Assembly (NCBI RefSeq): GCF_910596095.1
Contig: NC_056535.1
Coordinates: 7,977,501 to 8,041,500 of the forward strand
Length of the DNA: 64,000 nt
DNA from: Thunnus maccoyii
Lineage: Eukaryota; Chordata; Actinopteri; Scombriformes; Scombridae
Direction of reading: 5' to 3'
The notes beneath the pieces were generated by a model. That model ran no database searches. It worked only from the letters and a program-made list of their open reading frames with translations, and had not been told where the DNA came from. Made by a program: the position numbers and the translations under genes. Below, in pieces: positions 1,125-52,700 of this stretch. Position 1 is the first letter of the stretch; every line of letters begins with the position of its first letter.

Positions 1125-10276
<9,152 letters not shown>

Positions 10277-12262
10277 GATGATGACCAACAGAGGTACTGA
10301 CAGCACCAGGCCACTCCCTCTACCTTTGACACCTGGAGAAAGTCAGAAAGGGGCTTTAAGGTCTGATTATCATCGCATCGTATTTTTGTATCATGTCCAT
10401 CATCGTTTTACAGAGATCAAGAAAACTGTCAAACTGCTGCCGTCCCTCAGTCCCCAGTACTCCCCTTAAGTTTCCACTTACTGTAGGAGCTTTAAAGTTA
10501 TATAAGCTTTACTTCCACAATGACCACATGACATTATAAGCTGTATTTTTGTTTGGTATATCACATCAATGAAGCCATATCAGAAATATTCAGAATCAGA
10601 GATATTTTTAATGCTTACATTACATGATATTTTAAATTCTAGATGTCTTTATACAAATTTCCCTGTGATTCTGCATAAAATATTTTGTATCATTGGCATC
10701 TTCAGTAGGATTTTGTATATATAGAAATTAACATGTAGAAGTTTCTGTAGTTTTTCTTTTATCTTTTAAAGGGTTCTGTGGGTTTGAGCATTACCTCTGT
10801 ACAATTTTCTTAAACTGCACCTGTAGTTCTGAAATAAACGTAAACATCTGTTTTGGTGCACTAGAGAGAAAAAAATAAGAAAATAAAAATATCATATTCT
10901 CTATATTATATTAAATTTCAATTATTTGTGTATATTATTTGAAGAGACTGTGTCTAAGGAGAAGATTTTCGACAGCACGGACAACGACAGAATGAATATT
11001 GGAAGCTTTTATCATGCAGAGCTGAGAGCCCATGATGGAAAACACTATAAATTTTGCAGAACAGAAAACATCAACTGAACCATTGCAGCATTTCATGCTC
11101 CAAAAGCTGGAGCAGGTTAATTATATCTGCATGAGGATCATGGACAAAATCCACTGTCATCATTCACACTAAAGCAGAATCATATCCAATGGAATGTAAA
11201 AATTAAATTGCTGAAAGCGCAAATTTATTTAAAAGTTTCCCAGCAGAATTTGGGCACTAGAAAAATATTTGAGTGTTTATGAACTAACTTGAAATTGTTG
11301 AAATCTTAAATCAAAATGTATAAATGTAACATGAATTAGACATACATATTGACAATTTGCATGCTTACAGATTTACTTTCTTTTAAATTGCAATCCATTA
11401 TTTATGATGCTGCATCTTTCTGTTTTTCTGTACCGCACTTGTGAAGTTGAGTTCATGGAAATCAGTTGAAAAGATTCTCAAAATCAATAAGACCCAAATG
11501 TGAATCAAAGCTGTATAATGCAGCACAACTTTTGCAGGTTGACAATTTTCCTCTTATTCCAGTCAACTTGCAAGTAGAAAAAAAAATCATATAAAGGCAC
11601 TTCTTACCTGCCCATTCTTCATTGAACAGTCTTGATTTTATCCATTACATGAGCTCTTCCAAACAGGCCTCCATCCATGGTGATTATATCTAGAGACAAG
11701 GCTCTCCTCTCCTCAACAAAAGTAAATCCTCTATCATCTCAGCCTGTGTGCACTCTCAAAAATAACTATAACCAGACTAAAAACAATGGTCTAAAAAACA
11801 AGTAGTTGTGATTTCTAAAAAAACAAAATGAAACACTGACTTTTGAGGCTTTAGGGTGTAGTATCATGGCAGAATGAGGGAAAAGTGGAAAAAAAGCGCA
11901 ATATTACAGCAGTGAGATTCTACAAATCACTGCCAAATCCCTTAAAAGCTCTCTCTGTCTCTCGTTCTTTTCCCTCTGTGTGCATCTCTGTCCAGGCACT
12001 CCCCCCTCCTCACTCTCTCCCTCTCTTTCTCTCTGTTGAACCCTCTCCTCGCTCGCTCTCTCAGTGCACTAATGGCCACAGATTGGGATTATCATGCAGG
12101 CGTCTGTGAAGAAAGCACTAGGTGGACTAGCCCATATATTTTTTTTTTCATACAGCTGAACCAAATGCAGAACCCTCCCCCCCACCAGTATGATGGAACT
12201 CTGTCACTTTGAGAGATTAGATGAGCAGCGATTTGATTCATACTCTCACATACTAACATGTC

Positions 12263-47949: not shown

Positions 47950-48721
47950 AAAAAAATCTAAAGTGGAGGTAAATCCATGTAATGAAATCAGAGTCTAATA
48001 TCAAAAAAGTACATTTCAAAGTCTCCTTTTTCAATTCTTTTTGCATATACTGGAAAACACAATCATTTAGAACTTTAAACATTAAGTCGGAGCCAGTAAT
48101 GCACAGATAAATATCAAAACCTTTGATGAATCAATAAAATCAATAATTTTCTATAAAATGGAAAAGGGGGACAAGATGCAAATGAACTTCAACAAAAACA
48201 TGCTGGCCAGCTCCACTCGTTATCTTATACAGAATACGGATGCATGATAACATTGTTAACATGGGATTAAAGGATAAGCAGGTTCATTGCTAATAATGTT
48301 ATTTTTGGGCTGAAAGATCCAATTTGGGGAGGGTTATCGATTCCTCAAGTAAGAGTGTGGATCGACCAACAACACATTAACCACACAGCATGATAACAGA
48401 TTTGACCTCTACCCGTCACACTGTCCAAACTCTGATATAACAGTCATGACACAAGAAAAAAAAAACAAAAAACAGAAGACATCTGAGAAAGAAACGCACC
48501 TGGATTATAATGTCACAGCTCCTGGAATGCCTTTGGTGATTCTTCAGATAAACAAATCATACTAATACAGTCCAGAGGTAAATCTGTAAAGTGTCTTATG
48601 TTATCACCAAAAGAAAATCAGAAACCAAAATGAACTAAATGGCACAGAGTTGTACCATAGGACTGGTGGTCTCCAATATGGTCGTAGATTTTTGTTCTGT
48701 TTCTGCAGAAGTTAAAAGTTC
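38610..48721. other. Intergenic: ccdc120 5' region and mbd1 3' UTR
   Basis: No coding exon is recognised. The upper part, below 48722, should hold the mbd1 3' UTR; candidate minus-strand AATAAA sites lie near 46920 and 46480, so the UTR could be long. The ccdc120 promoter and first exon must lie above 38621; a mildly CpG-containing patch at about 45340-45560 is the best guess by eye. A 24-base T run is at 47920-47943. G-rich runs occur at 41887-41909. Otherwise unremarkable. Confidence 0.4.
40971..41047. mobile_element. 77-bp Tc1-derived mini-hairpin
   Basis: A near-perfect palindrome: left arm CAGTACCAGTCAAAGTTTGG continuing through ACACACTTTCTCATTC, right arm its reverse complement with about three differences, and a loop of only a few bases. 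TA dinucleotides flank both ends (40969-40970 and 41048-41049), the Tc1/mariner target duplication. The end sequence is a known type of fish Tc1 terminus (recollection). Confidence 0.85.
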
Positions 48722-49768
48722 TCATCCTCGCAGCATTCTGCAGTTAAAACAGATACTCACGTTTTTCTTAACCAAGAAATCACATGTTGACGCCCGCTCT
48801 AGTGTGATTGGGTCTTTATTAGATAACGGCTCTTTGGGGGGCAGGCCTTGGCACACCACGTACTTCTCCAGACCCAAAAGCAGATTCACCACTTCAGTCA
48901 CCGAGGTCAAGCGTGCCGGGTAGTCGTCGTACAGCGGGTGGGTGGGGAGCAGCGGCTGCTTTTGGACGGTGACCTGATAGCAGAAGCCGGGGTCGATCAA
49001 CACTATGGTGTCGGCCATGTTGGACTGTTTAGCACACTGGATAAGCTGCAGCTGCGGGCCCTCCACCATTATGGCATACCATAGGATTGGCAGTACAGAG
49101 GAACGTAAAGACTTAAGCAGTTTCATTAGGTGGTTTTCAATGTCCGCACCAGTCCCGGCTGGATTATCAGCTAAACTGAAGATCTGCGTAATCTGCAGAG
49201 AACAGAATGAAAATAAAAATACACACACAAGTTTAGCATTGTGTGTGGTTATCCAGACAATTAATATAAATATATTTTGTGAATGAAGACACTACGCACT
49301 CATCATTAGGGATGGATATCCTGGGGATTTTATCATTACTACTACTCTTATCAATACTCCTTATCTGTCTGGTTCTTTATCGATACTTTTATCGGTTCTT
49401 TTTCATTACGCAAAAATTGCTTTCTTAAAATACATTATTTTAAAAACTAATAATTTTTTATAAATAATATAAAACATATTATTTTAAAAAGAATACATTC
49501 AGAACAGGATTAGAGATGATTTATTTTGACATATAATTAAATATTGTTTCTAGAGCAGCAACAGTAATGTTCACAACAGCAAAGTCACTATAAACTCAAT
49601 AATATATCACTGGAAATAAAATCTAACATGTCAATAAAATAAATAATATTTCTGACATAAGTTTATAAAGAATGAAGAACACAGACATCAGTCAGTATCA
49701 GTCATTGATCCTGTCCTCCTCCCTCTGCTGCTGATGTGATTCACTTCTGCAGGTAGCGCTGGTTGAGC

Positions 49769-49799
<31 letters not shown>

Positions 49800-52700
49800 G
49801 CTGGTTTGAAGAGGGGAGGGGGGCTGTCGTCTCAGCCAGTAGCTAGGTTTACAAGAATTTGACTAGTTTTAAGATGCGTTAAAAACTAAGCTGAACAGTT
49901 AGGCTACATACAGAGAGCTTTGGTTTTAGCTTGTTCTTAACAATTCACTATTAGCCTAACCAGCAAGCGGTGGTTGTGTAAAACATGCTGAGTTAATAAC
50001 TACAGACTTATTTTTATAACGATAAAGAGTGTTACCTTGACTTGACGAGGTCAAGACAGTTGGATTTTTAGTTTCAGTATCTTAGCTGGGAGGCTGCACC
50101 ACTGAGGACGTAGGTACAGCAGCCACTTGGCTAAAACAATCAAACATGCTGTGCTGCTTCAAATTTAAAGAATGTTGTATTTGTGTTTCGTGAGATTGCT
50201 GGTGTGACCCCCTTTACACGGCGCAGTCACGTAACGTCAAACGTAATCACCTGACGCCAGCAGCTTCATCAGCACTGTTTGTCCAGGAGCTTATCAATAT
50301 TTCAGTACTGACCAGTCAGGAACCAGTACCAATTTAGTAACGGTTCTTGGTACCCATCCCTACTCACCATGGGCAACTCTTCTTCATCTTCCTCTTCGTC
50401 TTCAACATGCCTTTGACCATCTCTGCCTACAAATGATTTGTCTCCATCCCATCTGCTTAGCTGGTCCTGGATTGACAAAGTTGAACTCATGAGCTTAACT
50501 ATTAACTGCAACTACTGTCAGTCAAATGTCAATCTGTAACTCATATGCAATCAAAATTATCCAATCTGGAAAAAAAAACAAAAACCGAAATTGAATCATC
50601 GTTTCACCTATGATAGTACAAGAAGGGCCAGGCCCCCCAAAAAATTTTAATGGCAAAAATAACGCCAAATATCCATTCATTTGGAAATTAATAGCTTTTG
50701 TCTGTGCAGCGCTGTACCAAAACATGAGTTAACCTCTGTGTCGTTGCCTAGGAAACCGTTGGAAGTAACTCTTTTTAAGAAATAGGGAATTGCGTAATGT
50801 GTCTGCATGGCGATTGAGTGGTTGAGTGAGAGAGCGAGCAGCAGAAAAGTGATGGTGAATGTGAGTGGAGCAGAGGAAAAAGGAGTAGCAAGTAGCAGTA
50901 AGTTGTCAATCTGGCAGTAAATGTACAGTACAGACTACAGTGTTTCAGTTAATAAATGCTGCAGCTTCTCAAGACCAAGAAAAAGTCACATCTGTTATTT
51001 CCCCAAGTGCTGGAAAAATAGCAACAATGGGTTAACCTGACCCAAAGACACTAAACAGAGAAACAGAGAAGGGAGAAATGTGTGGCTGCTGAGTTCACTC
51101 TGTCCCGTATCATCCAACACAGCATTCAAGACATTGAACATGACACAAGTATGACTGAAGCTAAATTTGTGCACCATTAGTAGTTGCAACATAAGTGACA
51201 TTATGAGGCCTCATTCACTGACAGTCTGTACTTGCACAATGACCTAAACAGTAGTAACTGTGCTGCAGCACTCCACTGTAATCCAGTAAGACACTGCAGT
51301 TGTGTAATTGTAACAAGCTGGTGCAAAATTTGCCCTTCTGCCTACTACACTGACTGAATGCTAAAGCGTTGATGATGTGTCCAGATATTTTCATCTGTTC
51401 AAGTGACCACATGAGCAAACTGAAGGACAGCCAAGAACAGACGAGTGACAAGTAGAGAGCACAAACAGCTTGGCAGCGATATGCTTCCTTTATAAGGAGA
51501 TCAAATTAACTTCACCCCCAAGACAGTCAAGAGTAGGGGGGGGGGGGTTACTCCTACTTGAGAATAGGGTGAGAAGCAGCAGAAAATTGACAACTCATCA
51601 CATGCGTGCACACCCGTAACAAACTCAGTAATCGACCTCGAATTAAATGCTTGGAGGTGCAGGTGTGACACTATACACTGGTCAACCTGGTCAAACAGTT
51701 GGATCCAGGCCTGGATTCACTGAGGAGAGCCAGAGCCAAAGGCCAAATAACAGCATGACAACAGATATATAAGGAAACAGACAAGCAAAAGGCTCATGTG
51801 ACATGGCTTAATGTCAAAGAAAAAAAAAAAAAAACAAGTCAGGAGGAGTGTTGCTTTCCATCCTGGTTTTCAAAGCACAGATTGACAACCAGCAGAAACA
51901 ATGTGTGCAAATTTGCAACATCCCTAAAATGAAAAGCAGGAAGAACGTAAACTTACTAGATGGGAGTTGTTATGGTTGCCGATGTGAGGGACTCTGTCAG
52001 GCAGCCCATTTCGCACTCCAAAATCTGAATGATTTAACTGTTGAAACACAGCGTTCAGTTGACGTTCAGTTTGGTGAGATGAGTTTTGAGGCGAACAAGA
52101 ACATGTAGATAAGAATCTATTTTCACACCTGCATAGATGATTGGTGGTTTCTCAAGTTCATCTCATAAGCGAGTTTACTACCGCCGGCAGGCTCGGAGCT
52201 CCAATTCATCTGCAACGACAAAATATAAGCAAAGTAAGAAGAAAAGAACAAATCAAGTTTCGGAATTATCAACTGTGATGTTAAAAACATATTTTTTGTT
52301 AAACTCAAAAGGCACTGGCAACTCACTTGTAAGTTAATGTCATCATCTTCATTGTCAGTGAAGTCCATGCCAAGTTGTGCTCCCTTGTTTTTCTTTAAAC
52401 CTGACTTTCGACTGTATGTGTAGTGAGGCCTTGGCCTGCCTGGGAGTAGTGGATTATCTGCCCCATAGTCACCTTGTCCCATCTGGAAGGGTAGCAAGTG
52501 TCTCTGCCGAATACAAGCATTGACACATTTCAAACAGACGCTATTACATCAGTACCACAAGATACAGCAAATAGATTAAAAATTTGGCCCAGCAGTGTCC
52601 CACCATTGCCTGTCTCTGACACTGACGTAGACGACACTTCTGTCTCTTTTTGTTGCTACCTCCGAACTTGGGTTTGTCTATACAGAAATCACACGTGCCG

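What the first reader, a model, noticed from the sequence alone, without database searches (positions are those of the whole stretch)
49299..50370. hAT element inserted exactly across an mbd1 5' splice site, duplicating it
The penultimate mbd1 coding exon ends at 50368 and its donor reads ATG|GTGAG followed at once by the element's first base T. The 8-bp target duplication (ATGGTGAG on the coding strand) therefore spans the exon-intron boundary. The near copy keeps a working donor because the element's terminal T restores GTGAGT. The far copy, at the other end of the element, is now ATGATGAG, with the GT lost. Removing the element and one duplicate leaves an intron of about 111 bp, a normal small fish intron starting GTGAGTGCG. 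So a transposon landed on a splice site, the gene kept its reading frame, and the redundant donor appears to have decayed. This is a neat case of how insertions at donors can be tolerated.
Basis: partly seen in the sequence, partly recalled or inferred. Interest (0 to 1): 0.75.

Follow-up and report, generated by a model that had tools for sequence, protein, structure and literature searches.

The report
Transposon sitting on tuna splice site
In what is most likely yellowfin tuna, a piece of mobile DNA landed exactly on the start signal of a gene's intron, and the short duplication it made on landing left one intact copy of that signal in place; it is a clear example of a known kind of event.

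Summary
A 1,056-bp hAT-type element (minus strand, 50362-49307) lies between ATGGTGAG (50370-50363) and ATGATGAG (49306-49299). The first copy spans the donor of the penultimate coding exon of mbd1b (50466-50368). A database protein named Thunnus albacares mbd1b isoform X2 matches the window and joins ELPM|ITQIF across this intron; its contig length equals that of the window's contig.

Removing the element and one duplicate leaves a 111-nt intron. Predicted proteins of sea bass and turbot (2 of 133 homologues) read straight through it: 99 and 102 nt, no room for the element, GT right after the ATG codon. The joined tuna intron finds the sea bass protein, not the turbot one, in a database search. 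So the donor is ancestral and the far G-to-A change derived.

Twelve other duplicate pairs average 1.0 mismatch of 8, so drift can explain the lost donor. The near donor 9-mer is unchanged because the element's first T replaces the displaced +6 T. Untested: RNA reads, other tunas, the transposase source, recurrence. Ordinary mechanism, well documented case.

The parts
50368..50466 (-). penultimate coding exon of mbd1b (99 bp, ends ...GAGTTGCCCATG, phase 0)
   Evidence: P0001 joins DQLSRW...ELPM to ITQIF; acceptor before 50466
50363..50370 (-). near copy of the target-site duplication, ATGGTGAG, spanning the exon-intron boundary; donor GT at 50367-50366
   Evidence: sequence
50362..50370 (-). 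predicted donor in use, 9-mer ATGGTGAGT; its +6 T (50362) is the element's first base
   Evidence: sequence; same 9-mer as in the joined pre-insertion intron
49307..50362 (-). non-autonomous hAT-type element, 1,056 bp, TAGGGATGGGTA...TATCCATCCCTA
   Evidence: terminal repeats, family copies in the same genome, 8-bp duplications in copies
49299..49306 (-). far copy of the target-site duplication, ATGATGAG; the former donor GT now reads AT (derived base at 49303)
   Evidence: sequence; ancestral state GT from P0073 and P0116
49193..49298 (-). rest of the original intron (106 nt), ends TTCTCTGCAG
   Evidence: in-frame similarity to the read-through intron of P0073
48722..49192 (-). last coding exon of mbd1b, ITQIF...MLRG and stop TGA
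   Evidence: P0001

Best explanation
A non-autonomous hAT-type DNA transposon inserted into an 8-bp target (ATGGTGAG) that spans the 5' splice site of the last coding intron of mbd1b in the tuna lineage. Cut-and-paste insertion with 8-bp target duplication copied positions -3 to +5 of the donor to both sides of the element. The element begins with T, so the exon-side copy kept the exact pre-insertion 9-mer ATG|GTGAGT. The intron grew from about 111 to 1,175 nt. The intron-side copy became a redundant donor whose use would have put the element into the mRNA, with an in-frame stop starting 64 nt past the boundary. It later lost its GT by one G-to-A change, at a time and for reasons (drift or selection) not shown. 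Shown: the element and its ends, the duplication, the gene model's junction, GT in two element-free relatives. Inferred: that the near donor is used in RNA, the transposase, and the order insertion then mutation.
For: Element ends, inverted repeats and flanking 7-of-8 duplication. Family: 8-bp duplications at 6 to 8 of 8 in 12 of 16 loci where a paired 5' and 3' end was found; target composition T at position 2 and A at position 7, as the hAT element Hermes (passages of PMC2803484). Gene: MBD and CXXC domains; P0001 joins ELPM|ITQIF; 97 of 120 listed homologues carry PM directly before IT at this place, 83 of them PMITQIF exactly. Empty site: P0073 and P0116 read through a 99- and 102-nt intron beginning V-S-V after M; against P0073 0 of 5,000 shuffles reach the joined tuna intron's score, against P0116 17 of 5,000; P0073 is the top of three database hits of the joined-intron query, E 8e-14, above the tuna protein itself. 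Neutral yardstick: mean 1.0 mismatch in 8 over 12 family pairs. In-frame stop.
Against: No transcript data were available. The relatives' introns were seen only as amino acids in predicted proteins (2 of 133 listed homologues), so their DNA is unseen and a mis-modelled join cannot be fully excluded; P0116 was not returned by the joined-intron search and aligns weakly. Of the 120 homologues, 10 join a different sequence before IT and some skip the exon (P0069, P0104, P0110), so the exon may be alternative. The far side still has a weak GT 4 nt further on (TGAGTGCGT, scored 3.75 against 8.7 for the near donor). No transposase-bearing relative was found because the genome search did not complete.
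Confidence: 0.93

Rival explanations
1. The far copy ATGATGAG is the ancestral sequence and the near GT arose later; the donor was created after insertion.
For: The two copies differ at exactly this base, so in tuna alone either state could be ancestral.
Against: Sea bass and turbot, without the element, read M|V at this place, i.e. ATG followed by GT; the joined tuna intron is homologous to the sea bass one.
Confidence: 0.03
2. Selection, not drift, removed the far donor because its use put the element and a stop codon into the mRNA.
For: The single change hits the GT; use of the far donor would meet a stop starting 64 nt past the boundary. Donor score by a small matrix from 14 donors of my gene assembly falls from 8.7 to 3.85.
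Against: Twelve other duplicate pairs average 1.0 mismatch of 8 (pairs kept at 6 of 8 or better, so biased low), and the window copy differs from fragment consensuses by 5 of 93, 20 of 152 and 25 of 198. About one hit in eight is expected without selection, and 2 of 8 positions would kill the GT.
Confidence: 0.3
3. The 7-of-8 repeat is a chance match and the element is not a precise insertion.
For: The duplicates are not identical.
Against: Chance about 0.0005; the repeats abut the element ends that family copies share; two relatives lack the element.
Confidence: 0.005

Closest known systems
hAT-superfamily non-autonomous DNA transposons of vertebrates
   Same: 8-bp target duplication, short terminal inverted repeats, nTnnnnAn-like target, many copies of differing length
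   Different: No transposase source identified here; family name not assigned
[quoted passage not shown]
   Same: The target duplication supplies a donor next to the element
   Different: Here an existing intron and donor were hit; no new intron was made. Whether the family sits on other introns was not tested
Maize Ds and Ds1 elements (PMC5432752, passages seen)
   Same: hAT-type element with 8-bp duplication changing the donor landscape of a gene
   Different: Ds and Ds1 supply donors from their own ends; here the host donor itself is duplicated and the element gives only the +6 T

Membership tests
hAT superfamily (non-autonomous) | 8-bp target-site duplication | tested here: met
   7 of 8 at this copy; 6 to 8 of 8 in 12 of 16 other loci with paired ends
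hAT superfamily (non-autonomous) | short terminal inverted repeats beginning T/C-A-G-G-G (motif recalled) | tested here: met
   TAGGGATGGGTA / TATCCATCCCTA, 11 of 12; 15 bp perfect between the 5' and 3' fragment consensuses, read by eye
hAT superfamily (non-autonomous) | target preference nTnnnnAn | tested here: met
   13 targets: position 2 T 10.5 of 13, position 7 A 8 of 13; Hermes consensus from passages of PMC2803484
hAT superfamily (non-autonomous) | mobilised by a hAT transposase with the same ends in the genome | not tested
   The genome search with PF05699 did not complete
Introner | element creates a new intron at an intron-free site | tested here: not met
   two relatives have the intron without the element
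mbd1 (mbd1b) | MBD plus CXXC zinc fingers and orthology | tested here: met
   Pfam PF01429 and PF02008; P0001 named Thunnus albacares mbd1b isoform X2

The most novel reading that the evidence does not exclude
Donor sites are a structurally buffered landing place for hAT-type elements. An 8-bp duplication covering -3 to +5, plus a terminal T that restores +6, leaves the donor intact, and the family's nTnnnnAn target preference suits donors of the form nTG|GTRAG. If so, tolerated insertions exactly on donors should be over-represented across vertebrates, while the mirror event at acceptors should be rare.
Probability: 0.15. Interest if true: 0.55.

Novelty: new member of a known kind. Interest (0 to 1): 0.36.

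Why it matters
It shows at base resolution how a transposon can land on an essential splice signal and leave it intact: the duplication made on landing gives the gene a spare. It also gives a testable example of what happens to the spare donor afterwards.

Tried and rejected
A paralogous tuna intron as empty-site control: only the gene itself and one weak hit (46% over 37 aa, C4, L010) came back, too distant to use. Intron DNA of other fish: the genome search states that the window's genome has no relatives there, so I used predicted proteins that read through the intron. Rfam on 48700-51200: no match up to E 1. Pfam and PDB on my first C-terminal piece (186 aa starting at MSS, before P0001 corrected the exon start): nothing. 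Search for other copies of the family directly after GTRAG (pattern GTRAGTAGGGATGGRTA) and for hAT transposase (PF05699): not completed. Six of ten paper searches looked for prior cases of transposon insertions on donors; the closest seen were introners and Ds elements. A soybean CACTA paper (PMC2613891, passages) did not bear on the question. I make no claim that such a case is absent from print.

Rows dropped: of 16 loci with paired ends I used 12; L019, L026 and L035 reached at most 4 of 8, and L028 (6 of 8) was left out because its 5' end looked internal. Several loci appear on both strands in that output (25 rows) and were counted once. L004 and L038 are the same place, so the 14 rows (3' end) and 13 rows (700-900) behind two fragment consensuses are 13 and 12 distinct copies; L002 in the 17-copy 5' set is an outlier at 22%. 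The fragment 377-620 had one copy and was not used. My first count of PM|ITQIF, 86 of 120, allowed variants; one search recounts 83 exact.

Full report
What was checked. The window lies in G000:C3:7977501-8041500, a 782-Mb genome in 54 contigs. The best protein match to the assembled gene, P0001, is named methyl-CpG-binding domain protein 1b isoform X2 of Thunnus albacares, and its longest contig has 37,555,862 bases, the length of C3. So the window is most likely yellowfin tuna. The gene carries an MBD and CXXC zinc fingers. My first exon assembly agrees with P0001 except at three places (an eight-residue stretch, a seven-residue stretch and the first 13 residues of the penultimate exon) and at the C-terminal end, where P0001 runs on to the stop. 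P0001 places the penultimate coding exon at 50466-50368 and joins ELPM to ITQIF; the last coding exon runs 49192-48722 with its stop.

The element. On the gene's strand the exon ends ATG, followed by GTGAG and then TAGGGATGGGTACC. The element runs 1,056 bp to ...CATCCCTA and is followed by ATGATGAG and TGCGTAG. The flanking 8-mers match at 7 of 8. In the same genome a search with the 5' end gave 43 rows, one of them the copy itself; 25 of the other 42 begin within one base of the element's first T (40 of 73 candidates were scored). The 3' end gave 64 rows (40 of 333 candidates scored). Of 16 fetched loci with a 5' and a 3' end in the right order, 12 were taken as having an 8-bp duplication: L012, L016, L018 and L022 at 8 of 8; L017, L023, L024 and L029 at 7; L013, L015, L034 and L036 at 6. 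By chance at least 6 of 8 is expected in 0.5% of fixed pairs. Including this copy, position 2 of the target is T in 10.5 of 13 and position 7 is A in 8 of 13, like Hermes (passages of PMC2803484). The 5' and 3' fragment consensuses share a perfect 15-bp inverted repeat (read). This is a non-autonomous hAT-type family with copies of 264 to 1,322 bp among the 12. That a hAT transposase moves it is inferred from established knowledge of the superfamily; the search for one did not complete.

The empty site. Two of the 133 homologues in hand read through the intron in frame from the conserved PM: P0073 of Dicentrarchus labrax, ELPM|VSVLLRIFLLAVRAATDNANPFVYLFSVCCSLQ|ITQIF (33 aa, 99 nt), and P0116 of Scophthalmus maximus, EFPM|VSVLLRLFMWALWTTTENVNMLRVCCHADSVVLQ|ITQIF (34 aa, 102 nt). 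With the element and one duplicate removed, the tuna intron is 111 nt and translates in the same frame to VSA-stop-CLHSQNIFILIVWITTHNAKLVCVFLFSFCSLQ. Against P0073 it scores 46, which 0 of 5,000 residue shuffles and 0 of 3,000 nucleotide shuffles reach; the other two frames score 18 and 0. Against P0116 it scores 31, which 17 of 5,000 shuffles reach. A database search with the joined intron and its exon edges (76 residues, about half of them exon) returned three proteins: P0073 first at E 8e-14, then the tuna protein P0001 at 2.3e-5 and P0069 at 2.9e-4; P0116 did not come back. P0073 outscores the tuna protein because it holds the intron residues. So relatives have this intron without the element and with GT at the same place. 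The element is an insertion, GT is ancestral, and AT at 49303-49302 is derived. A caution: these are predicted proteins, seen as residues and not as DNA.

Why the gene tolerates it. The duplication covers positions -3 to +5 of the donor, and the element's first base, T, stands in for the displaced +6 T. The near donor 9-mer, ATGGTGAGT, is therefore the same as before insertion. If the far donor had been used instead, the message would meet a TGA that starts 64 nt past the boundary, inside the element. Exon definition (established knowledge) favours the near donor. By a small matrix built from 14 donors of my own gene assembly the near donor scores 8.7, the far copy 3.85, and a GT four bases further on the far side (TGAGTGCGT) 3.75; the gene's own donors run from 4.88 to 10.65. 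That the gene is in fact spliced so is inferred from the database gene model, not from reads.

Drift or selection. The far copy has one change, and it hits the GT. But the 12 family pairs average 1.0 mismatch (pairs kept at 6 of 8 or better, so biased low). The window copy differs from the fragment consensuses by 5 of 93, 20 of 152 and 25 of 198 bases, which are rough figures since subfamilies are mixed. About one change in eight is what an unconstrained duplicate of this age would carry, so selection is possible but not needed.

Homologues. Of the 120 listed (of 180 found), 83 carry PMITQIF exactly and 14 more PMIT with a variant after it; 8 have another residue in place of M, 10 join a different sequence before the last exon, and 5 were not placed by the patterns used. 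Among the ten, P0069, P0104 and P0110 look like exon skipping and P0073 and P0116 are the read-through models. The junction is conserved; the exon itself may be alternative in some fish.

Known context. Introners that take their 5' splice site from the target duplication are described in PMC9860276 (passages), and Ds-type elements that alter donors in PMC5432752 (passages). The tuna case works alike at an existing donor. It is a new member of a known kind, with an unusually clean record.

Noticed in passing
G000:C24, about 3.36-3.61, 5.88-6.19 and 8.36-8.52 Mb: The middle part of the element (query bases 385-900) has a dense cluster of copies of about 75% identity on one chromosome, suggesting local amplification of that part (40 of 836 candidates scored).
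   Followed up: no
window 49771-49800: A run of 30 G inside the element (plus strand); the one family copy aligned there (L036) has no such run.
   Followed up: no
G000:C4:32338294-32338404 (L010): Weak match (46% over 37 aa) to the mbd1b C-terminus; perhaps an mbd1a-like paralogue.
   Followed up: partly
proteins P0069, P0104, P0110, P0073, P0116: In some fish models the penultimate mbd1b exon is skipped or its following intron retained, so this junction may be alternatively spliced.
   Followed up: partly
window 1458-10342, minus strand: Open frames that look like a class C receptor (metabotropic glutamate type), judged by eye from the translations only.
   Followed up: no
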